Shown here piece after piece: positions 856 to 43,098 of a stretch of DNA of 64,000 bases. The first letter of the stretch is position 1. Every line of letters begins with the position of its first letter. Both the position numbers and the translations under genes were made by a program. The stretch is from a virus, in the IMG/VR virus record IMGVR_UViG_3300021185_002167, positions 1 to 64,000 of that record; one strand, given 5' to 3'. Below the pieces are notes generated by a model, which worked only from the letters and a program-made list of their open reading frames with translations, was not told the origin of the DNA and made no database searches.

Positions 856-863
856 TATAAATA
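856..863 (+). promoter_or_regulatory. Late promoter (TATAAATA), leaderless configuration
   Basis: Exact T4 late -10 box ending 6 nt before the ATG at 870. By T4 spacing transcription would begin at about 869, so the fibre mRNA would be essentially leaderless; no Shine-Dalgarno is correctly placed. Confidence 0.7.
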
Positions 864-869
864 AGTACT

Positions 870-3584
870 ATGGCATTTACAATAAACAGAAGATTATCTC
901 AACTATTAGACAGCAGTGGTCAGTTATTATCGGGTAAAATACCTAACGATTATATAACTACAGATCATATTGCTAATAATGCTATTACAACTTCAATGTT
1001 GCATACTGGTTTTTTAGTACCTTCAAGTAGCTTATCATCAATTGATACTGATAATGTTGAAGAAGGTTCAACAAATGTTTATTACACTGATGCTCGTGTA
1101 GGCACATACATTTCTGGTAACAGAAGCTATGGTAATATTACTACAACAGGATATCTTGCAGGACCTGCTACGTTTACAATCGATCCAGCTGGAGTAGGAG
1201 ACAATACTGGAACAGTCGTTATCGCTGGTAACTTACAGGTTGATGGAACTACAACTACTATTAATAGTACAACTCTTGCAGTTGATGACTTAAATTTAAC
1301 TTTAGCAAGTGGCGCAGCCGATTCATCTGCAGCAAATGGAGCTGGAATAACAATTGACGGCGCAAGTGCTACAATTACATACGATGGTACAAACGATGAG
1401 TGGGACTTTAACAAAGGTATACACATTAATAGTACTGACTCAATTAAATTACCAGTAGGTACAACAGCTCAAAGAAATAGTAGTCCAGTTGCAGGTATGT
1501 TTAGATATAATTCTACAACAGGAGAATTTGAAGGATACACTGATGCATGGGGTGCAATTGCTGGCGGTGGGAATGGCTCTTATTCAACAGATAAATTTAC
1601 TGCTACTTCAGGACAAACTAACTTTACACTTTCATCAACAGTCACTGACGAAGATAATCTTATCGTATTCGTTGATGGTGTATTTCAAGCACATGATACA
1701 TACACTGTTTCAGGAACAACGCTTATATTTTCTACTGGTATAGTTTTAAATAGAGTAGTTACAGTATATCACGTAACACCAGTTTCTATTGGTGTACCTT
1801 CAGATAATACCGTTACTTCAGCAAAACTAAGTGGCGCTTTAACAACACCTGGAGATTTAACTGTTCCTGGTTCAGGAGATGTTAATACAGGAATATTAGC
1901 AACACATTCACGTGCAGGTGTTGGTATGACACTAAGACTCAATAACACAAATAATGGCAGCGATAAAGGTTCAGGTATTAAATGGCAAAGCGGAGGATTT
2001 GATACTTCAGCAATAATAGGTCGTAGTGATGCGGCTGCAACATCAGGCGATTCTCCTGGTTATTTGACTTTACATACATCAGCCGATGGTACAGATAATT
2101 TAACAGAAAGAATGCGTATTGATTCATCAGGAAACGTTGGAATTGGAACAACTCCGCAATCAACTGTAGGGATAGTAGATATTGCAGGTTCTGCAACTAA
2201 CTATAATACCGCCCCTATGATTACTTTTAGAGATTCGACTGGAGCAGCTGATTCTAGAAACTGGAGTATAGGTAATATTGCGATTAACTATGGAGATTTT
2301 CATATTGGAGTTGGAAATTCAAATAGTGATTATTTTGATGCTACATCTCATTCAAAATTTATGATAAATAAAGATGGCAATGTTGGAATTGGAACGACTA
2401 GTCCTGCAACAGGTCTTGAAGTTGCTACTACAAACTATACTTTTGCAGGTACTAATTTTGATATATATGGATTATTTGGCGATACAAGTGGTGGTATCCG
2501 TTTAGGTGCAGATAGTAGTAATGAAGATTCTGTTATAGGAACGACAGGTACTAATAATCTTCAGTTTGTAACTTACAATGGTTCTGCTTGGGGAAGTCGA
2601 ATGACTCTAACCAATACAGGCAACTTGTTGGTAGGTAATACAGTTGTTAATCCTGCTAGTGGATTTGCTTCTCAAAAAGGTTTTGGTTATGCAGCATCAA
2701 CAGGTAAAGTTGAAATTGCTACAGATGCTAATGCTGCTGTTATGGAACTTGGCAAGAACAACTCTAATGATGGAAGTATCTTAGTATTTCGCAAACAATC
2801 TAATACAGTTGGAAGTATTGGTACTGAAGGTGGTGATATAGTTATTGGTACTGGTGATACAGCAGTGCAATTCGCTGATTCATTAGATTGTATTAGACCA
2901 TTCACATCTTCAGGTTCAGGTAATGGCGGTAGAGATAATGCGATTGATTTAGGTGCATCAGGTCAAAGATTTAAAGACCTACACCTTTCAAATAGAGCTA
3001 ATGTGGGACATGTTCATTTATCTAATGCTGGGAACTACACAAATAATCACGTCGGAGTATATGCAAACGGCACTGTTGTTAATACAGCAGCTAGCCAAGA
3101 TGGTTGGCTTATGCAAGGTGGTTACGGAAAGCTTAAATGGGACTCAACTGGAGTTATGTTAAATGGTATTACATATGAACCAAATAAACCTCACTGGTAT
3201 GGTAGTGTAACAAATACAAATGGTAGTGGAGTAGCAAATTCTGGAGTTGCATATACTGCTCTTAGTAACAATACTATTACAGGTTCAGTAGTAAGTGGCC
3301 AATTTAGACTTATTGCTCCTCATGGTGGATTGTATTTAATAAACTTTAATACTATCTGTGATACTACAACTGGAAGAATAGATAGTAGAGTTTTGGTAAA
3401 TGGCAACGTTGTTACTGAACAATTATCTGAAAATAATGGTACCGGCTACCATTATAGAGGTGTAAGTATTGTAGTAAAACTTGCATATAATGATTACGTA
3501 ACTTTTGTAAATGATGATTGGTACAACGCAACAGTAACAACTTTTGAGGCCTGGAGAACAGCCTCTATAACAATGATAGGATAA
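870..3584 (+). CDS. Long tail fibre-like structural protein with C1q/TNF-like C-terminus
   Basis: 904 residues, repetitive and beta-rich. The N-terminal region (about 50-230) has the VYYTDARV and NLQVDGTTTTIN segments typical of fibres of marine T4-like phages. The middle carries two ERMRID/MINKDG-GNVGIGT repeat units (near residues 415 and 510) like the one in the preceding fibre. The last ~125 residues (AYTALSNNTITG... to the end) look like a C1q/TNF-type jelly roll, a common trimeric receptor-binding head. No S74 chaperone is present. It is preceded by a late promoter overlapping its start region. Probably a host-recognition fibre; which one is unknown. Confidence 0.75.
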   Translation: MAFTINRRLSQLLDSSGQLLSGKIPNDYITTDHIANNAITTSMLHTGFLVPSSSLSSIDTDNVEEGSTNVYYTDARVGTYISGNRSYGNITTTGYLAGPATFTIDPAGVGDNTGTVVIAGNLQVDGTTTTINSTTLAVDDLNLTLASGAADSSAANGAGITIDGASATITYDGTNDEWDFNKGIHINSTDSIKLPVGTTAQRNSSPVAGMFRYNSTTGEFEGYTDAWGAIAGGGNGSYSTDKFTATSGQTNFTLSSTVTDEDNLIVFVDGVFQAHDTYTVSGTTLIFSTGIVLNRVVTVYHVTPVSIGVPSDNTVTSAKLSGALTTPGDLTVPGSGDVNTGILATHSRAGVGMTLRLNNTNNGSDKGSGIKWQSGGFDTSAIIGRSDAAATSGDSPGYLTLHTSADGTDNLTERMRIDSSGNVGIGTTPQSTVGIVDIAGSATNYNTAPMITFRDSTGAADSRNWSIGNIAINYGDFHIGVGNSNSDYFDATSHSKFMINKDGNVGIGTTSPATGLEVATTNYTFAGTNFDIYGLFGDTSGGIRLGADSSNEDSVIGTTGTNNLQFVTYNGSAWGSRMTLTNTGNLLVGNTVVNPASGFASQKGFGYAASTGKVEIATDANAAVMELGKNNSNDGSILVFRKQSNTVGSIGTEGGDIVIGTGDTAVQFADSLDCIRPFTSSGSGNGGRDNAIDLGASGQRFKDLHLSNRANVGHVHLSNAGNYTNNHVGVYANGTVVNTAASQDGWLMQGGYGKLKWDSTGVMLNGITYEPNKPHWYGSVTNTNGSGVANSGVAYTALSNNTITGSVVSGQFRLIAPHGGLYLINFNTICDTTTGRIDSRVLVNGNVVTEQLSENNGTGYHYRGVSIVVKLAYNDYVTFVNDDWYNATVTTFEAWRTASITMIG

Positions 3585-3868: not shown

Positions 3869-3876
3869 TATAAATA
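3869..3876 (+). promoter_or_regulatory. Late promoter for the neck/terminase operon
   Basis: TATAAATA in the 43-bp gap before gene 13; predicted start near 3882, followed by an AGGA Shine-Dalgarno and the ATG at 3897. Confidence 0.75.
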
Positions 3877-9364: not shown

Positions 9365-9372
9365 TATAAATA
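9365..9372 (+). promoter_or_regulatory. Late promoter for the sheath/tube genes
   Basis: TATAAATA in the 83-bp gap upstream of gene 18; predicted start near 9378 gives a ~55-nt leader ending in an AGAGGA Shine-Dalgarno. Confidence 0.75.
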
Positions 9373-9431
9373 AAAGTATGAATATTCTTATTATGAGACA
9401 TATTAACTAACTCAACAAAGAGGACAAAGCG

Positions 9432-11684: not shown

Positions 11685-11692
11685 TATAAATA
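11685..11692 (+). promoter_or_regulatory. Late promoter for the portal/prohead genes
   Basis: TATAAATA immediately after the gene 19 stop; predicted start near 11698, just before a leader hairpin. Confidence 0.75.
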
Positions 11693-17193: not shown

Positions 17194-17218
17194 GGGGTCT
17201 AACTGACCCCACTAATTT
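17194..17218 (+). terminator. Probable intrinsic terminator
   Basis: GGGGTC-TAACT-GACCCC, 6-bp GC-rich stem with 5-nt loop, followed by ACTAATTTT. The U-tract is short. Confidence 0.6.
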
Positions 17219-17226
17219 TATAAATA
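17219..17226 (+). promoter_or_regulatory. Late promoter, leaderless configuration
   Basis: TATAAATA ends exactly 5 nt before the ATG at 17232, so by T4 spacing the A of the ATG is +1. No Shine-Dalgarno is present between promoter and start. Confidence 0.72.
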
Positions 17227-17231
17227 GATAT

Positions 17232-17702
17232 ATGGCAACTTTAACTACAAACAAAAATTTCTTAAGTCCGGTAGGATTTCAGTTTAAAATTAATAGTACT
17301 CAATATGCAAATATGGAGTATTTCTGTGTTGCTGCAACTTTGCCAGGTATTAATATAACACCTGTTGAACAAGGTTATCGTGGAGTCAATTTAAGATTTA
17401 CAGGTGATAGACTTACATTTGATGACCTAGCGTTACGTATAAATGTAACAGAGAATTTAGAAAACTATATAGAGACATTCAATTGGATGCATAACTTAGC
17501 ACAAGCTGAAAAAAGCGAAGAGTTTAAAGTTGATGCTACACTGCTTGTTCTTTCATCGCATAACAATGTGGTAAAAGAAATAAAATTTAGTGGTGTATTT
17601 CCACAGAGTGTAAGTCCTATAGAGTTTGATTCTCAAGTAGAGAGCGTTGAATACGTTCAAATGGATGTAAGCTTTGCTTATACCAATTTCGAATTTGTAT
17701 AA
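17232..17702 (+). CDS. Tail-tube-fold protein (gp19-like paralogue; position of marine gene 3)
   Basis: 156 residues. The C-terminal pattern KEIKFSGVFPQSVSPIEFDSQ..YVQMDVSFAYTNFEF parallels that of gp19 (FRGLFPTNISEIEVSYDS..EFTVEFQVQYWE), and the N-terminal VGFQFKI..ATLPGINI fits a tube domain. It is probably a tail-tube-related protein such as a tube initiator, terminator or completion factor. Marine T4-like genomes often carry the gene annotated as 3 here, between 23 and uvsY; I cannot confirm homology to T4 gp3. Predicted to be translated from a leaderless late mRNA. Confidence 0.65.
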   Translation: MATLTTNKNFLSPVGFQFKINSTQYANMEYFCVAATLPGINITPVEQGYRGVNLRFTGDRLTFDDLALRINVTENLENYIETFNWMHNLAQAEKSEEFKVDATLLVLSSHNNVVKEIKFSGVFPQSVSPIEFDSQVESVEYVQMDVSFAYTNFEFV

Positions 17703-17758
17703 GATATTTACAAATTCATTAAAATATAATATAATAGATACATAATAAATATAATAGT

Positions 17759-18205
17759 ATGAATAATTTGCAAACAATATTAGAGATGTGGAAAACCGAT
17801 TCGGTTATCGACGAAGTCAACTTAGATGAAACCTCAAGAGATTCAGCCAAACTACATGGCAAATACCTAGAACTACTTTCAATAAACAGAATGAAGCTTA
17901 AAAAAGCTGAGTTAGATTTTAAAGTAGTGCTTAAGGATAAATGGTTACATTACAACGGTAAGATGTCTAAAGAAGACATTGACGATAAAGGATGGGATTA
18001 CGATCCACTTAACGGTCTTACTGTACTTAAAGGCGATATGGATAGATACTATGACGCTGACCCATTGATTCAAGAATGGCAAGCAAAAATCCAATACCTT
18101 GAAGAACTCTGCTCAACTCTTAAAGAGATATTAGAGAACATAAAGTGGAGACATCAAAACATAAAGAACATGATTGAATGGAGAAAATTTACTAGCGGAA
18201 TCTAA
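17759..18205 (+). CDS. uvsY: UvsY recombination mediator
   Basis: 148 residues (T4 UvsY is 137). Helical and charged: LHGKYLELLSINRMKLKKAELDFKVVLKDKWLHYNGKMSKEDI and the WRHQNIKNMIEWRKFTSG end are typical. UvsY loads UvsX recombinase onto gp32-coated single-stranded DNA. It overlaps uvsW by one base, the common uvsY-uvsW pairing. A one-mismatch late box (AATAAATA, 17744-17751) lies upstream; no clear Shine-Dalgarno is visible. Confidence 0.88.
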   Translation: MNNLQTILEMWKTDSVIDEVNLDETSRDSAKLHGKYLELLSINRMKLKKAELDFKVVLKDKWLHYNGKMSKEDIDDKGWDYDPLNGLTVLKGDMDRYYDADPLIQEWQAKIQYLEELCSTLKEILENIKWRHQNIKNMIEWRKFTSGI

Positions 18206-19701
18206 TGGATAAGATTACTATTCAAAAGAAGAACGAAGTCTTCTTACATATAAAAACAGACCCATCAATTGAGATGGAACTATCAGAGCATTTCCAATTC
18301 TTTGTACCTGGTTATAAATTTATGCCTGCGTATCGTAATAGAATGTGGGATGGTAAAATAAGACTTTTTGATAGTAGAAAGAAAACATTATACACAGGAT
18401 TACATAAATACTTGCAAGAGTTTTGTGACGTGAGGGATTATAAGCTAGAAGTGGTAGATTCACCTCAATACGGTGCACTCGAATCATCCCTAGAGCCTAA
18501 CATCGAAGGGCTATTATCCCAAATGTCCCTTTCTGTGAATGGAGGGGATATAATACCTAGACAATATCAGTTGGAGGGACTCTCGCACACGCTTTCAAAA
18601 GAGAAATCCTTATTACTATCACCTACTGCTTCTGGGAAGAGTTTAATCATATATTTAGCAATAAGATATTACCTTGATTGTTTTGATGGTAGCATTTTGC
18701 TGATAGTACCTACGACATCATTGGTAGAGCAAATGTACTCTGACTTCGGAGACTATTCAAGTAAGGATACTTGGTCTCATGAAGAATCATGCCATAAGAT
18801 ATATTCAGGTAGAGAAAAGTTTGGAGTAAAACAAAGAGTTATTATATCAACATGGCAGTCAATTTATAAATTACCTGGCAATTGGTTTTCCGGGTTTGGG
18901 ATGGTGATAGGAGATGAAGCACATAACTTTAAAGCAAAGTCACTTACAAGTATATTAGAAAAATGTACTGAAGCTAAATATCGTATTGGTACTACTGGAA
19001 CATTAGATGGTAGTCAAACTCATCAGCTCGTATTAGAAGGATTGTTTGGTCCTGTATATAAAGTTACGACTACAAAAGAGTTAATGGATAATAACGATTT
19101 AGCTCAATTAGAGATTAATATACTTATATTGAAATATAAAGAAGAGCTTTGTAAAGCAGTTGTGAAGAGTAAATATCAAGAAGAACTCGATTTTATCGTA
19201 AGGTATGAACCAAGAAATAACTTTATCTCTAACTTAGCATTAGACCAATCTGGTAATACTCTTATACTCTTTAATTATGTTGATAAGCATGGTAAACCAT
19301 TGCATTCATTATTACAAACAAAGATAGAAAAAGATAGAAAACTCTTTTATGTGTCAGGAGAAACCGATGTCGATACAAGAGAATCAATACGTGAGATTAC
19401 CGAGAAAGAAAAGAACGCAATTATCGTTGCAAGTATTGGCACTTTTTCTACTGGTATTAATATTCGTAATTTACACAACATCATATTTGCTAGCCCAAGT
19501 AAAAGCCAAATTAGAGTACTTCAGTCGATAGGCCGAGGTTTAAGGAAGAGTGAAGATGGCAGTGTAACAAAGATATATGATATTGCAGATGATTTACACT
19601 ATAAGTCTAAAAAGAATTATACATTACAACATGCTGCAGAAAGGATAAAGATATATTCGAAAGAACGTTTTAACTACAAGATGTTCGATATAGACATATA
19701 A
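18205..19701 (+). CDS. uvsW: UvsW superfamily 2 helicase
   Basis: 498 residues (T4 UvsW is 503). N-terminal domain with FFVPGYKFMPAYRNRMWDGKIRLFD; Walker A SPTASGKS (139-146), DEAH box (237-240), TGTLDG motif III, and C-terminal motifs V/VI with FSTGINIRNLHNIIFASPSKSQIRVLQSIGRGLRK. It unwinds branched recombination and R-loop structures and helps switch from origin to recombination-dependent replication. All motifs intact. A late promoter overlaps its stop codon. Confidence 0.94.
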   Translation: MDKITIQKKNEVFLHIKTDPSIEMELSEHFQFFVPGYKFMPAYRNRMWDGKIRLFDSRKKTLYTGLHKYLQEFCDVRDYKLEVVDSPQYGALESSLEPNIEGLLSQMSLSVNGGDIIPRQYQLEGLSHTLSKEKSLLLSPTASGKSLIIYLAIRYYLDCFDGSILLIVPTTSLVEQMYSDFGDYSSKDTWSHEESCHKIYSGREKFGVKQRVIISTWQSIYKLPGNWFSGFGMVIGDEAHNFKAKSLTSILEKCTEAKYRIGTTGTLDGSQTHQLVLEGLFGPVYKVTTTKELMDNNDLAQLEINILILKYKEELCKAVVKSKYQEELDFIVRYEPRNNFISNLALDQSGNTLILFNYVDKHGKPLHSLLQTKIEKDRKLFYVSGETDVDTRESIREITEKEKNAIIVASIGTFSTGINIRNLHNIIFASPSKSQIRVLQSIGRGLRKSEDGSVTKIYDIADDLHYKSKKNYTLQHAAERIKIYSKERFNYKMFDIDI

Positions 19702-19704
19702 ATA
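19697..19704 (+). promoter_or_regulatory. Late promoter, leaderless configuration
   Basis: TATAAATA overlaps the uvsW stop and ends 5 nt before the ATG at 19710, placing the initiating A at the predicted +1. No Shine-Dalgarno. Confidence 0.7.
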
Positions 19705-19709
19705 ATAAT

Positions 19710-20102
19710 ATGGAAGGATTAAATATAAGACACTTTAAACTCATGAATGGTGAGGAAATAATAGGCTTACTTGCTGTAAAGAATGATGATAACTATATCA
19801 TTGAAAGACCAGTAAGACTTAATCCGGGAATGTTAGGTGGTATACAATTTAGCGCCTGGTTTCCTTTTTCAGAGAGTAAACAATTTAAAGTACTTAAAAG
19901 CGCAATCATACAGCACGTACCAATAGCAGAGTCTATAAAAGATACGTATGTTAATTTTGCTTTGAGTATGGATAAACCAATCAGTATACCTGATACAAGA
20001 TCTGATCAAGAACTCTTAGAAGAGTACGAAGATCGACTTGCTAACCAATATGCTGATGAAGGACTGCCCGAAGTAGATGACAAGAAGAGAACTATACATT
20101 AA
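19710..20102 (+). CDS. Sm-like (LSm) fold protein
   Basis: 130 residues. The N-terminal half has the small beta-barrel pattern of phage Sm-like proteins: FKLMNGEEIIGLLAVKNDDNYIIERPVRLNP, matched in layout by a second such protein at 34621 (IRLSSGEEVVGTV). Bacterial LSm/Hfq proteins bind RNA; the function of the phage versions is not established. The C-terminal 45 residues are acidic and probably disordered. Late, leaderless expression is predicted, and an opposing promoter at 20139 would generate antisense RNA across this gene. Confidence 0.6.
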   Translation: MEGLNIRHFKLMNGEEIIGLLAVKNDDNYIIERPVRLNPGMLGGIQFSAWFPFSESKQFKVLKSAIIQHVPIAESIKDTYVNFALSMDKPISIPDTRSDQELLEEYEDRLANQYADEGLPEVDDKKRTIH

Positions 20103-20266: not shown

Positions 20267-20836
20267 ATGGTTAAACCTAAAGACAAACCACACTACGTAA
20301 ATAACAAAGAGTTTTCGCAGGCAGTCATGGACTATGCTATCGAAGCTCGAGAATGCAGATCTGCAGACAAACCTGTACCAACAGTAACTGATTACATTGC
20401 AACATGTTTTATTAGAATATCTGAAGGACTGTCTCACAGACCGAACTTTGTTCGGTACACTTATAGAGAAGAAATGGTTATGGATGCCGTTGAAAATTGC
20501 TTAAGAGCAATTGGTAACTATAACATTGAAACTGCTACAAGGACTGGAAAGCCGAATGCATTTAGTTATTTTACTCAAATATGCTACTTTGCATTTATTC
20601 GTAGAATTACCAAAGAAAAGAAACAACAAGATATTAAATTCAAATTCATTGAGAAGATGGGTATAGAAGATTTTGTTCAAATGGGTATGGATACCGAAGG
20701 AGCTGAACAAACTATGGCTTATGTTGATACGTTAAGACAAAGGATTGGTACTATACGTACAAAGGATGAAGCCATTAAGAAATTTGCAAAAGAGGAGAAG
20801 AAGCGAGAGAAAGAAAAACTTGAGCTGTTTATGTAA
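20267..20836 (+). CDS. 55: gp55-like sigma factor for late transcription
   Basis: 189 residues (T4 gp55 is 185). Conserved PHYVNNKEFSQAVMDY, the ISEGLSHRPNFVRYTYREEMVMDAVENCLRAI core (sigma region 2-like) and KPNAFSYFTQICYFAFIRRITKEKK. gp55 directs host RNA polymerase to TATAAATA promoters and is activated by the sliding clamp gp45 (present at 27792). Expressed from an early-type promoter with GGAG Shine-Dalgarno, so late control is made early. The C-terminus is Lys-rich (clamp-binding region in T4). Confidence 0.93.
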   Translation: MVKPKDKPHYVNNKEFSQAVMDYAIEARECRSADKPVPTVTDYIATCFIRISEGLSHRPNFVRYTYREEMVMDAVENCLRAIGNYNIETATRTGKPNAFSYFTQICYFAFIRRITKEKKQQDIKFKFIEKMGIEDFVQMGMDTEGAEQTMAYVDTLRQRIGTIRTKDEAIKKFAKEEKKREKEKLELFM

Positions 20837-27791: not shown

Positions 27792-28463
27792 ATGAACCTA
27801 TCAAACGACACCTTAAATGTGTTAAAAAACTTTGCAACAATTAATCCTAATGTTGTTTTCAAACCAGGACAAAAGTTAAAGACTATATCAGAGTCCAAAA
27901 CAATTCTAGCATCAGCTACGATTGTAGAAGACTTTCCACAAGAGTTTGGAGTCTATGACTTAAACGAATTCTTATCAGTCTTAAACTTGATTGATAATCC
28001 AACGTTGGATTTTGAAGAGAAAGCAGTATTAGTAACAGGTGGTGGACAAAAGATAAGATATTTCTTTTCAGAAAGCGATATCCTAACTACACCTCAAAAA
28101 GATATTCAGATGCCAGATCCAGAGCTTGGTGTTTCTATTGATGAAGATAAACTTAATCAAATAAGAAAAGCTGCTGCTGTACTTGGTCATACTGAACTAG
28201 CGATTACAGGCGACAATGGAATTGTTACAGCCTCTGTACTTGATACAAGAGACTCGACTTCCAATGTGTTTGAAATAGAGCTAGATAAAGACAACTCATG
28301 TAAAAATGAGTTTAACTTCGTGGTAAGTATTCCTAACTTGAAGTTACTACCAGGCGATTACTTTGTAAGCATCAGCTCAAAGCTAATCTCTAACTGGACT
28401 AATAGTAACTATCCGGTAGATTATTTTATCGCTCTTGAGAAGAACTCAAGCTACAATGTATAA
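27792..28463 (+). CDS. 45: gp45 sliding clamp
   Basis: 223 residues (T4 gp45 is 228). N-terminal LSNDTLNVLKNFATINPNVVF and KTILASATIVEDFPQEFGVYDLNEFLSVL are diagnostic, as is the C-terminal PNLKLLPGDYFVSISSKLISNWTN. It is the trimeric processivity ring for gp43 and the mobile enhancer for gp55-dependent late promoters. Its 3' end contains a late box for the following gene. Confidence 0.95.
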   Translation: MNLSNDTLNVLKNFATINPNVVFKPGQKLKTISESKTILASATIVEDFPQEFGVYDLNEFLSVLNLIDNPTLDFEEKAVLVTGGGQKIRYFFSESDILTTPQKDIQMPDPELGVSIDEDKLNQIRKAAAVLGHTELAITGDNGIVTASVLDTRDSTSNVFEIELDKDNSCKNEFNFVVSIPNLKLLPGDYFVSISSKLISNWTNSNYPVDYFIALEKNSSYNV

Positions 28464-31985: not shown

Positions 31986-32014
31986 TTTACAAACGACTTA
32001 AACTATGGTATAAT
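31986..32014 (+). promoter_or_regulatory. Early-type promoter for gene 43, leaderless configuration
   Basis: TTTACA / 17 bp / TATAAT with TGG. The seventh base after the -10 is the A of the gene 43 ATG (32021), so +1 coincides with the start codon. Confidence 0.88.
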
Positions 32015-32020
32015 ATATAC

Positions 32021-34552
32021 ATGCTACAATACTACACAAACGTTTCTCGATATGGGAATCAAATTCTCCTAAGAGGATATGACCACGGTCGAAGAATCGA
32101 AAAGAAAATCAAATACGAACCAATTCTTTTTACATCAACTAATCTTAAGACTTCTTGGAAAGCTCTTGATGGTTCTCCTGTTGGTGTAGCAAATGCTGGT
32201 AAAAGATTCGAGTCAATGCGTACTGCGAATGAATATGTTACAGCAAACAAAGGAGTATCAGGTAAAACAATCTATGGAAATACAAAGTATATTCCTGCGT
32301 TTATCAATGACTACTACCCAGGCGATATAGAATTCAATCGTAACAAAATCAACGTAACCACCATCGATATCGAAGTACAATCTGATGATGGATTCCCTGA
32401 ACCAGAAAAAGCAGATCACAAAGTAACTGCAATCTGTATGAAGAGTAATATTGGAGAAACATATTACGTTTGGGGACTTGGTGATTACGATTCAGATAAA
32501 TCTTACATGAAAGACCACATGGTTGTATATCGTAAGTTTGATCGTGAAGATGATTTACTTATTAATTTTATTACGCACTGGTCATCTCAACAATATTGTC
32601 CAGATGTCGTAACAGGTTGGAACAGTCGATTCTTCGATATTCCATACCTTGTCAATCGTATTAATCGTATGCTTGGCGAAAGCTATGTCAAAAGACTTAG
32701 TCCTTGGGGATTAGTTGACAGACAAGAAATAACAAAGATGGGTAGAACACAAACTGCTTATGAGCTTAAAGGTATATCACAACTTGATTACTTAGACTTA
32801 TTTAAGAAGTTTGGCTACTCTTATGGTCCACAAGAATCGTATAAACTCGATCATATTGCACATGTTGTTCTTGGAGAAAAGAAACTTTCATACGAAGAAT
32901 ACTCTAATCTACATACTCTTTACAAATACAATCATCAAAAGTTTATTGATTACAATATCAAAGACGTTGAGCTTGTCGATCGTATCGAAGATAAACTTGG
33001 ATTGATTACTCTCTGTATGACAATGGCATATAAAGGTGGAGTCAATTACAATGATACCTTTGGTACTACTCTTATATGGGATACGATTATCTATCGTAAA
33101 CTCTTTCAAAACAACATTGTTGTACCATTCATCGAAGATAAAGTCAAATCAGATTATCCAGGTGGATTCGTAAAAGATCCGCATGTAGGAATACACGATA
33201 ATGTAGTATCATTCGATCTTAACTCGCTTTATCCTTCTATTATTATGCAATATAATATGTCGCCTGAAACAATTTCAAGTGGAGAGATTACTCAATTCGA
33301 TATTGAAAACGTACTTGCAAAAGGAGCAAGACCAGATAAACGTGGTAAAGCTCTTGCAGCAAATGGTCAATACTTTGAAACTAATCGACCAGGCATTGTT
33401 CCATTCATTATCGATGAGATGTATAAAGAACGTGTAGAAATCAAACAAGAAATGATTAATGCTCAAAAAGAATTACAAAAGGTCGATAAAGAAGATAAGC
33501 AAGAAATGTATCGTATAGAACGTAATATTGCAATTGCAGAAAACAGACAAATGTCGATTAAGATTCTTCTTAACTCTCTTTATGGCGCAATGGGTAATCG
33601 TTACTTTAGATTCTTTGACCAAAGAATTGCTGAAGCTATTACACTTACCGGACAGTTAACTATTCGTTGGGCTGAATACGCTCTTAACTCTTATCTTAAC
33701 AAAGCTTTAAAAAACACAACATGGAAAGACTATATTGTTGCAATCGATACTGATTCGCTTTATGTATCTCTTGACGATGTAGTAACAAAACTTAATCCTA
33801 AGAGTCCAATTGACTTTATGGATAAACTCAGTCAAGAAGCTCTTGAACCAGCTCTTGAATCTGCATACGCAGATCTTTATGACATGCTTGGTGGTGTAGA
33901 TAATCGTATGGTCATGAAACGTGAAGCAATCGCTGATCGTGCTCTTTGGACTGCAAAGAAACGTTATATAATGAATGTACATGACAACGAAGGAGTAAGA
34001 TACGCTGAACCAAAACTCAAAATCATGGGTATTGAAGCTATCAAATCTTCTACACCAGCTCCATGTCGTCAAGCGCTTAAAGATATCTTTCACGTTATCA
34101 TGAAAGAAGACGAAAAGTCAGTACAAGACGCGATTGAGCAATTTAAAAATCATTTCAAAACTCTTGACCCTGACCAAATCGCGTTTCCACGTGGAGTAAC
34201 TCAAGTCAAGAAGTGGCAGGATAGAAACAACCTCTATAAAAAAGGTACACCTATTCATGTTCGTGGTTCTATACTCTATAACAAGCTTGTAGAAGATATG
34301 TCACTTAAAAAGAAATACGAACAAATCAAAGCAGGCGAAAAGATTAAATTCTTGTATCTTCGTCAGCCTAATTCAATTCATGAAAATGTTATCTCATTCT
34401 CAGACTACTTACCAGAAGAGTTTGGCTTAAGAAAATATATCGATCATGAACTACAATTTCAAAAGACATTCCTAGATCCGATTCAACCGATCTTGGATGC
34501 TGTCGGTTGGACATCAGAAGAAGTAGCCAGCTTAGAGGACTTCTTTGGCTAA
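32021..34552 (+). CDS. 43: gp43 family B DNA polymerase
   Basis: 843 residues (T4 gp43 is 898). Exonuclease motifs: TTIDIEVQSDDGFP (Exo I), VTGWNSRFFDIPYL (Exo II), YNIKDVELVD (Exo III). Polymerase motifs: FDLNSLYPSIIMQYNMSPET (A), KILLNSLYGAMGNRYFRF (B), AIDTDSLYV (C). C-terminal region holds the clamp-binding tail (SLEDFFG). Both activities look intact. The ATG is at the predicted transcription start with no Shine-Dalgarno. Confidence 0.96.
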   Translation: MLQYYTNVSRYGNQILLRGYDHGRRIEKKIKYEPILFTSTNLKTSWKALDGSPVGVANAGKRFESMRTANEYVTANKGVSGKTIYGNTKYIPAFINDYYPGDIEFNRNKINVTTIDIEVQSDDGFPEPEKADHKVTAICMKSNIGETYYVWGLGDYDSDKSYMKDHMVVYRKFDREDDLLINFITHWSSQQYCPDVVTGWNSRFFDIPYLVNRINRMLGESYVKRLSPWGLVDRQEITKMGRTQTAYELKGISQLDYLDLFKKFGYSYGPQESYKLDHIAHVVLGEKKLSYEEYSNLHTLYKYNHQKFIDYNIKDVELVDRIEDKLGLITLCMTMAYKGGVNYNDTFGTTLIWDTIIYRKLFQNNIVVPFIEDKVKSDYPGGFVKDPHVGIHDNVVSFDLNSLYPSIIMQYNMSPETISSGEITQFDIENVLAKGARPDKRGKALAANGQYFETNRPGIVPFIIDEMYKERVEIKQEMINAQKELQKVDKEDKQEMYRIERNIAIAENRQMSIKILLNSLYGAMGNRYFRFFDQRIAEAITLTGQLTIRWAEYALNSYLNKALKNTTWKDYIVAIDTDSLYVSLDDVVTKLNPKSPIDFMDKLSQEALEPALESAYADLYDMLGGVDNRMVMKREAIADRALWTAKKRYIMNVHDNEGVRYAEPKLKIMGIEAIKSSTPAPCRQALKDIFHVIMKEDEKSVQDAIEQFKNHFKTLDPDQIAFPRGVTQVKKWQDRNNLYKKGTPIHVRGSILYNKLVEDMSLKKKYEQIKAGEKIKFLYLRQPNSIHENVISFSDYLPEEFGLRKYIDHELQFQKTFLDPIQPILDAVGWTSEEVASLEDFFG

Positions 34553-42082: not shown

Positions 42083-42111
42083 TTTACATTTGACTCAAAC
42101 TATGGTATAAT
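42083..42111 (+). promoter_or_regulatory. Early-type promoter, leaderless configuration
   Basis: TTTACA / 17 bp / TATAAT with TGG. The predicted +1 is exactly the A of the ATG at 42118; no Shine-Dalgarno. Confidence 0.88.
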
Positions 42112-42117
42112 ATAACA

Positions 42118-43098
42118 ATGAAGAATATAATTAACTGTCCATTTATTCCGATAGCAAAGAGAGCTGCTTCGCATAGAGGAGCTCAAGGTGTTATGTATGG
42201 AGACCAGATTCGTGAAGCACACGGACATTGTGATGTCAATTACGGAGGTGTAATAGCTGACCACAACTCATACGACGCTCTTTGGGTATATCATGGGAAT
42301 GATTATTCAGGTGGATTAAATATGTTTGGAGGAGTATATGGCTTTCCTTACGTACAGAATACAGTCAATTTTTCTGAGTTCAAAGGTAAAGTCTATTCTA
42401 TTGGAATGGACTTTCCACCTTACCATGAAATGATAAAAACAAAGTTAGAATCAGCCAAAAGAGAAGTACAACCAGAATGGGCTAAAGTTAACTTACAAAA
42501 TTTAGAACGAATGTTTAATACTGCAGAAACAGTTAACTACATTCATCCAACTCGTAAAGTAGTAATAGGTGATAGTCATTCTATTTGCATGTATCGACCA
42601 GGTTGGACAGTAAACAGTGTTCCATTTAAAACATTGAATGGCGCTCTTAAAGAAGGATTCGATTCTTTTATTCCACATGAATACGATGAGCTTGAATGTT
42701 ACTTTGGTAATATAGATATAAGACATCATATTATAAGATTAAATGAAAAGGTAGAAGATCTAGCAGATAGATATATGGAAGAAGCAAGAAAATATAAAGC
42801 TACAATATATGAATTACTACCAATAGAAAACGAATCAAGAAAGATACCACAATCAGGTTATTATAAGAAAGAACCTTTTCATGGTTCATGGCAAGAAAGA
42901 ACAGATGCAAGAAATCAATTTAATGACTATATTGAAAAACAATATGGTATCAAAAGATGGACAAAACATCTATATAATCAAGAAGGAGAACTTGATTTTA
43001 AATATATGGAAAAACCGCAATCAATACATTTATCACGAGAGTTTTATCCATATTGGAATGGATTAGAGACCAATAATTTACAGGAGTTTTTTGGATGA
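42118..43098 (+). CDS. SGNH-like protein of the modification cluster
   Basis: 326 residues. VVIGDSHSICMYRPG (148-162) looks like SGNH block I (GDSHS), and CYFGNIDIRHHI (194-205) like block III (G-x-x-D-x-R-x-H); SIHLSREFYPYW near the end could hold the block V His. The first ~140 residues (DHNSYDALWVYHGNDYSGG, MFGGVYGFPY) are not recognised. It ends LQEFFG, again a possible clamp-binding tail. May be an esterase or acyltransferase-like enzyme; target unknown. Overlaps the next gene by 4 nt and is predicted leaderless. Confidence 0.5.
   Translation: MKNIINCPFIPIAKRAASHRGAQGVMYGDQIREAHGHCDVNYGGVIADHNSYDALWVYHGNDYSGGLNMFGGVYGFPYVQNTVNFSEFKGKVYSIGMDFPPYHEMIKTKLESAKREVQPEWAKVNLQNLERMFNTAETVNYIHPTRKVVIGDSHSICMYRPGWTVNSVPFKTLNGALKEGFDSFIPHEYDELECYFGNIDIRHHIIRLNEKVEDLADRYMEEARKYKATIYELLPIENESRKIPQSGYYKKEPFHGSWQERTDARNQFNDYIEKQYGIKRWTKHLYNQEGELDFKYMEKPQSIHLSREFYPYWNGLETNNLQEFFG

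What the first reader, a model, noticed from the sequence alone, without database searches (positions are those of the whole stretch)
17219..17232. Leaderless late mRNAs from TATAAATA placed 5-6 nt before the ATG
At 870, 17232 and 19710 the late box ends 6, 5 and 5 nt before ATGG. By T4 spacing, +1 falls on or one base before the A of the start codon, and no Shine-Dalgarno exists. Three cases with the same geometry argue against chance and would be an unusual expression mode for abundant structural proteins.
Basis: partly seen in the sequence, partly recalled or inferred. Interest (0 to 1): 0.72.

Follow-up and report, generated by a model that had tools for sequence, protein, structure and literature searches.

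The report
Leaderless promoters in marine T4-like phages
In this uncultured marine relative of phage T4, and in phages isolated on the ocean bacterium SAR11, many promoters sit so close to the start codon that the predicted messenger RNA begins at the first letter of the gene, with no ribosome-binding leader; this seems undescribed for T4-type phages and can be tested directly on cultured phages.

Summary
TATAAATA ends 6, 5 and 5 nt before the ATGs at 870, 17232 and 19710. T4's box lies at -13 to -6, so +1 falls on the A of ATG (gap 5) or one base before it (gap 6). Chance is excluded: the 128-kb record has 8 ORF starts at gaps 5-7 against 0.5 expected; HTVC008M has 9 (0.3), Mosig 6 (0.2), Melnitz 3 (0.1). 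T4, Syn9, S-PM2 and C48C1 have none; P-HM2 has 1. In relatives the gap is exactly 5 in 33/37 distinct tail-tube and 33/33 gp25 upstream regions, while spacer letters vary and -1 is almost always T. Leadered late promoters of the same phages have a purine at the sixth base after the box (87%) and mostly a Shine-Dalgarno (56/67): an internal sign of the start site. The architecture is broader than first thought: in this lineage sigma70-type promoters of DNA polymerase and other genes also end 6-9 nt before ATG, without Shine-Dalgarno. Best reading: a conserved set of leaderless (0-3 nt leader) early and late mRNAs, present in two separate lineages. No transcript was measured. The 19710 product has no known structural role.

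The parts
17219..17226 (+). TATAAATA late box, 5 nt before the ATG of the tail-tube family gene
   Evidence: gap 5 in 33 of 37 distinct relatives
17232..17702 (+). tail-tube family protein (phrog_45; annotated gp3 / tail completion in cyanophages), predicted leaderless, +1 = A of ATG
17194..17210 (+). terminator-like hairpin just upstream of the box
   Evidence: fold -12.4 kcal/mol, z -3.8
856..863 (+). TATAAATA late box, gap 6
870..3584 (+). tail-fibre-like gene, predicted leaderless (0-1 nt leader)
   Evidence: gap 5-6 in 5 of 12 distinct relatives
19697..19704 (+). TATAAATA late box, gap 5; contains the uvsW stop codon
19710..20102 (+). small protein of unknown role (phrog_527) between uvsW and gp55, predicted leaderless
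   Evidence: gap 5/6/7 in 32 of 33 distinct relatives
17744..17751 (+). AATAAATA 7 nt before the uvsY ATG at 17759; weaker case, late box not conserved in relatives
31986..32014 (+). sigma70-type promoter TTTACA-17-TATAAT ending 6 nt before the ATG (32021) of DNA polymerase gp43
   Evidence: TATAAT-like box at gap 6-9 and no Shine-Dalgarno in 29 of 29 distinct relatives
42083..42111 (+). sigma70-type promoter TTTACA-17-TATAAT ending 6 nt before the ATG at 42118 (unknown function)
20267..20836 (+). gp55-like late sigma factor, the presumed reader of the boxes
   Evidence: phrog_234, E 2.6e-50
27792..28463 (+). gp45-like sliding clamp, the presumed late co-activator
   Evidence: phrog_223, E 1.2e-72
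3869..3876 (+). contrast: late box 20 nt before ATG 3897, with AGGA at normal spacing (leadered late gene)
9365..9372 (+). contrast: late box 59 nt before the tail sheath ATG 9432, with GAGGA (leadered late gene)
11685..11692 (+). contrast: late box 50 nt before the portal ATG 11743, with GAGGA (leadered late gene)

Best explanation
The boxes are gp55-type late promoters whose transcription start coincides with the A of the start codon (gap 5) or lies one to two bases from it (gaps 6-7). The mRNAs of these genes would start 5'-AUG, without a Shine-Dalgarno leader, and be translated as leaderless mRNAs by ribosomes that bind a 5'-terminal AUG, as for lambda cI. Other late genes of the same phage keep a leader with a Shine-Dalgarno, so both modes run side by side. 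In this lineage the same rule holds for sigma70-type promoters of several genes, among them DNA polymerase. Shown from sequence: the geometry, conservation of spacing rather than of spacer letters, the -1 T / +1 A pattern, the missing Shine-Dalgarno, the reality of the start codons. Inferred: the start site itself (from T4 plus the internal initiator signature). Not tested: the way of translation and the selective reason.
For: T4 box at -13 to -6 (PMC1524935). Excess of ORF starts at gap 5-7 in four phages and not in T4, Syn9, S-PM2, C48C1. Gap conserved: tail tube 33/37 at 5, gp25 33/33 at 5, gp2 39/42 at 5-6, gene 19710 32/33 at 5-7, HTVC-type gp25 39/39 at 5-9. Spacer letters vary, -1 is T in 167/175, codons 2-26 vary mostly at third positions. 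Leadered late promoters of the same phages have a purine at base 6 after the box in 87% and a Shine-Dalgarno in 56/67; the leaderless set has one usable Shine-Dalgarno in 26. Depositors' CDS starts agree at 8 HTVC008M and 7 Mosig genes. Terminator-like hairpin just upstream of 17219. Orthologues of 71037 swap a sigma70 promoter for a late box and keep the start at the AUG.
Against: No RNA data. The T4 start-site rule is transferred across a large distance. At gap 6 the strict T4 rule gives a 1-nt leader starting with T, so the A must be chosen instead or the leader is 1 nt. Some orthologues have gap 8, or no box (4 of 37 tail tube; 6 of 12 at 870). Read-through mRNAs from upstream genes are not excluded, above all at 870 and 19710, where the upstream gene ends at or inside the box.
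Confidence: 0.85

Rival explanations
1. The proximity of box and ATG reflects genome compaction; the genes are mainly translated from longer read-through mRNAs or by coupling to the upstream gene, and the promoter is a minor addition.
For: At 19710 the upstream stop codon lies in the box and at 870 the upstream gene ends 3 nt before the box. The phages are compact.
Against: At 17232 there is a 45-nt intergenic stretch with a terminator-like hairpin before the box. Compaction would not fix the gap at 5 with none at 0-4 and 9-13, nor remove the Shine-Dalgarno. T4 and cyanophages, also compact, lack the pattern.
Confidence: 0.08
2. These are real late promoters, but the start site in these phages differs from T4, or the true start codon lies further downstream, so that the mRNAs have ordinary leaders.
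For: The start site is inferred. In Melnitz the tail-tube homologue is annotated to start 17 nt after the gap-5 ATG, behind AAAAGGG.
Against: N-terminal codons 2-26 evolve as coding sequence in tail tube, gp25 and gp2. The initiator signature at base 6 after the box in leadered promoters fixes the start site independently of T4. Depositors chose the same starts.
Confidence: 0.06
3. Why the trait exists: it is an adaptation to oceanic hosts that use Shine-Dalgarno little. This is an add-on to the best explanation, not a replacement for it.
For: Both SAR11 myophage isolates show it; cyanophages and T4 do not. The tree needs at least two changes of state, so convergence is possible. In 400 kb of one SAR11 genome a Shine-Dalgarno core precedes 9% of genes (background 4%), and -10-like hexamers peak weakly at gap 6 of first genes, 7 of 116.
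Against: The phages use Shine-Dalgarno for 44-54% of their genes, and cyanophages use it little (21-25%) without leaderless boxes. The host of this record is unknown. An old trait lost in C48C1 and cyanophages fits the tree as well.
Confidence: 0.35
4. Chance matches in an AT-rich genome.
For: TATAAATA is expected about 12 times in the window by composition.
Against: All controls: permuted motifs, shuffles, other genomes and conservation.
Confidence: 0.01

Closest known systems
T4 late promoters (gp55/gp33/gp45; PMC1524935, PMC2988020, PMC7892883)
   Same: same TATAAATA box; gp55 and gp45 homologues in the window; same order uvsY-uvsW-gp55 as in marine relatives
   Different: in T4 no late box lies 5-7 nt before an ORF start and 27 of 30 leadered late genes have a Shine-Dalgarno core
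Cyanophage NATAAATA late promoters (S-PM2, Syn9, P-HM2; PMC2984593)
   Same: same box, homologous genes, marine T4-like relatives
   Different: boxes lie mostly 20-40 nt before the start codon; gap 5-7 absent in Syn9 and S-PM2, one case in P-HM2
Leaderless genes with a -10 element abutting the ORF in Deinococcus-Thermus (PMC12340547)
   Same: promoter -10 element a few bp before the start codon, no ribosome-binding site, mRNA starting at the AUG
   Different: cellular, host sigma factor; here also a phage-encoded sigma factor in a lytic T4-like phage, mixed with many Shine-Dalgarno genes
Leaderless lambda cI mRNA (as cited in PMC4965119)
   Same: phage mRNA starting 5'-AUG
   Different: one temperate repressor gene; here a conserved set of virion, baseplate, DNA-end and replication genes

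Membership tests
T4-type late promoter | TATAAATA (NATAAATA) box upstream of late genes on the coding strand | tested here: met
   19 of 20 boxes on the coding strand; boxes before tail, portal, sheath, gp25 and gp2 genes
T4-type late promoter | phage-encoded gp55 and gp45 homologues | tested here: met
   phrog_234 and phrog_223 in the window
T4-type late promoter | gp33 co-activator | not tested
   no search made for it in this record
T4-type late promoter | start site with the box at -13 to -6 | tested here: inconclusive
   initiator-like purine at the sixth base after the box; no RNA data
Leaderless mRNA | transcription start within 0-3 nt of the start codon | tested here: inconclusive
   predicted from box spacing and initiator signature; not measured
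Leaderless mRNA | no Shine-Dalgarno | tested here: met
   1 of 26 with a usable core against 56 of 67 leadered late genes
Leaderless mRNA | AUG rather than GUG or UUG start | tested here: met
   no GTG/TTG at gap 5-7 in the four phages with the feature; all distinct relatives start with ATG
Leaderless mRNA | translation by recognition of a 5'-terminal AUG | not testable with these tools
   needs toeprinting or reporter assays

The most novel reading that the evidence does not exclude
Marine T4-like phages have evolved, at least twice, a leaderless expression class that spans two promoter types (host-sigma early and gp55 late) and includes DNA polymerase, baseplate, tail and DNA-end genes, as an adaptation to oceanic hosts that rely little on Shine-Dalgarno; the leaderless state is selected for itself, since promoter types can be swapped while the start site stays on the AUG.
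Probability: 0.35. Interest if true: 0.8.

Novelty: new variant of a known kind. Interest (0 to 1): 0.66.

Why it matters
T4 late transcription is a textbook system, and its late mRNAs mostly carry Shine-Dalgarno leaders. A conserved leaderless class in phages of the most abundant ocean bacteria would mean that translation initiation, not only promoter use, has been redesigned in these viruses. It bears on how SAR11 ribosomes start translation. A 2020 survey reported that late-promoter prediction by methods made for cyanophages was unsuccessful in pelagimyophages (PMC7029224); promoters abutting start codons may be part of the reason (inference). It can be tested with two cultured phages.

Tried and rejected
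Chance: rejected by permuted-motif, shuffle and cross-genome controls. Wrong start codons: rejected for tail tube, gp25 and gp2 by codon-position rates and independent annotation; for gene 19710 the codon-position test is weak (0.48/0.45/0.61). Gene 73658 (gap 6) is doubtful because an SD-preceded ATG follows. uvsY (gap 7, AATAAATA) is weak: 29 of 31 distinct relatives lack a late box, and several of those printed have a TATAAT near the ATG. A gap-5 ATG before the tail sheath (9378) opens only a 10-codon ORF and is not conserved, so it is not counted. A single origin was looked for with a five-protein tree; the phages with the trait do not form one clade. The host test in SAR11 gave only a weak signal. 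A search for the SAR11 anti-Shine-Dalgarno found nothing with the pattern used and was not pursued. The Syn9 start-site paper (10.1038/ismej.2015.210) is not held. No tRNA gene was found in the window that could hint at a host.

Full report
What is there. The window is half of a 128,059-bp uncultured virus record with T4-type genes: late sigma gp55 at 20267-20836, clamp gp45 at 27792-28463, DNA polymerase gp43 at 32021, capsid, portal, sheath and terminase. TATAAATA occurs 20 times, 19 of them on the coding strand.

Start site. A T4 comparison places TATAAATA at -13 to -6 (PMC1524935), which puts +1 on the A of ATG at gap 5. The phages give their own support. In 67 leadered late promoters of four related phages the sixth base after the box is 69% A and 18% G, and the fifth is 49% T: the pyrimidine/purine pattern of an initiator, at exactly the place where the AUG stands in the other class.

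Chance. In 80 related IMG/VR loci plus the window, 22.6% of distinct boxes have an ORF-opening ATG at gap 5 against 0.13% for permuted octamers, with none at gaps 0-4 and 9-13. Genome by genome, gaps 5-7 hold 8 ORF starts in this record (0.48 expected, Poisson P 5e-8), 9 in Pelagibacter phage HTVC008M (0.33), 6 in Pelagibacter phage Mosig (0.19) and 3 in methylophage Melnitz (0.14), but none in T4, Syn9, S-PM2 and C48C1 and one in P-HM2. All these phages show the usual boxes further upstream as well. One of the eight here, 73658, may really start at a later SD-preceded ATG.

Conservation. Among distinct upstream regions of relatives the gap is 5 in 33/37 (tail tube, 17232) and 33/33 (gp25, 97411); 5 or 6 in 39/42 (gp2, 92193 minus); 5, 6 or 7 in 32/33 (gene 19710). 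Spacer letters vary (11 different spacers for tail tube) while the box, -1 T (167/175) and ATG stay. gp25 of the HTVC008M type has gap 5-9 in 39/39, without SD. The tail-fibre gene at 870 is less conserved: 5 of 12. The gp2 orthologue has gap 5 or 6 in this record, HTVC008M, Mosig and Melnitz but gap 27 in C48C1; gp25 has gap 5 here and in HTVC008M but is SD-led at gap 16 in Melnitz. Depositors' CDS starts agree: eight in HTVC008M and seven in Mosig lie exactly 5 nt after the box.

Shine-Dalgarno. Of the 26 leaderless-geometry genes one has an SD core at a usable distance; of 67 leadered late genes in the same phages 56 do. The start codons are real: codons 2-26 of tail tube, gp25 and gp2 vary two to three times more at third positions than at first and second.

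Upstream context. The tail-tube box follows a terminator-like hairpin (17194-17210, -12.4 kcal/mol, z -3.8); relatives have hairpins followed by U-runs there. Transcripts from the capsid side should thus largely stop before the box (inference).

Beyond the late box. In this record TATAAT ends 6-7 nt before ATG at 32021 (gp43), 42118, 67929, 71037 and 83557, each preceded by TTTACA. All 29 distinct gp43 relatives have a TATAAT-like box 6-9 nt before ATG and no SD. Orthologues of 71037 mostly have gap 6-8, and in two (L551, L573) the sigma70 promoter is replaced by TATAAATA at gap 5. That swap suggests that the position of the start site on the AUG is kept whichever holoenzyme is used (inference).

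Phylogeny and host. A tree of gp23, gp20, terminase, gp43 and gp55 groups this record with C48C1 (100/100), and HTVC008M, Mosig and Melnitz together (98/98) beside the cyanophages. Leaderless late promoters therefore need at least two changes of state: either convergence, or an old trait lost in C48C1 and cyanophages. In 400 kb of one SAR11 genome an SD core precedes 9% of genes (4% background), and -10-like hexamers peak weakly 6 nt before ATG of first genes. A host-driven cause is plausible but unproven; cyanophages also use little SD and do not show the trait.

Literature. Full-text searches of the open library showed no report of leaderless late mRNAs in T4-like phages among the papers listed. 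A pelagimyophage survey says that late-promoter prediction was unsuccessful (PMC7029224). Leaderless genes from promoters abutting ORFs are known in Deinococcus-Thermus (PMC12340547), and the leaderless lambda cI mRNA is classical (PMC4965119). Subscription papers, including the Syn9 start-site study, could not be read here, so novelty is stated with that limit.

Verdict. The leaderless reading is the best explanation (0.85), extended to sigma70-type promoters and to a second phage lineage. The remark about abundant structural proteins is only partly right. Nothing here measures RNA.

Noticed in passing
9373-9431: The roughly 60-nt leader of the tail sheath gene is conserved in relatives down to 61% protein identity (motifs TATTATG, AACTAACTCAA, TAGAGGA..AAGCG), more than an ordinary leader needs; possibly a regulatory RNA element.
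   Followed up: partly
9378-9410: The sheath mRNA would itself begin with an AUG (gap 5) opening a 10-codon ORF, like the 5'-uAUG mRNAs described in E. coli (PMC4965119); the ATG is not conserved in relatives. Melnitz has a similar out-of-frame gap-5 ATG before its tail-tube gene (L155:3256).
   Followed up: partly
L097:6990-7036 (record 70990-71036): A late box sits immediately upstream of the -35 of a sigma70-type promoter before gene 71037: a tandem late/early promoter, seen in many relatives.
   Followed up: no
L489-L508 (SAR11 genome, 400 kb): SAR11 genes rarely carry a Shine-Dalgarno core (9% against 4% background), whereas T4-like phages of SAR11 carry one before 44-46% of genes.
   Followed up: partly
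19697-19704: The stop codon of uvsW (TAA, ending at 19701) lies inside the late box of the next gene, so one octamer serves both.
   Followed up: no
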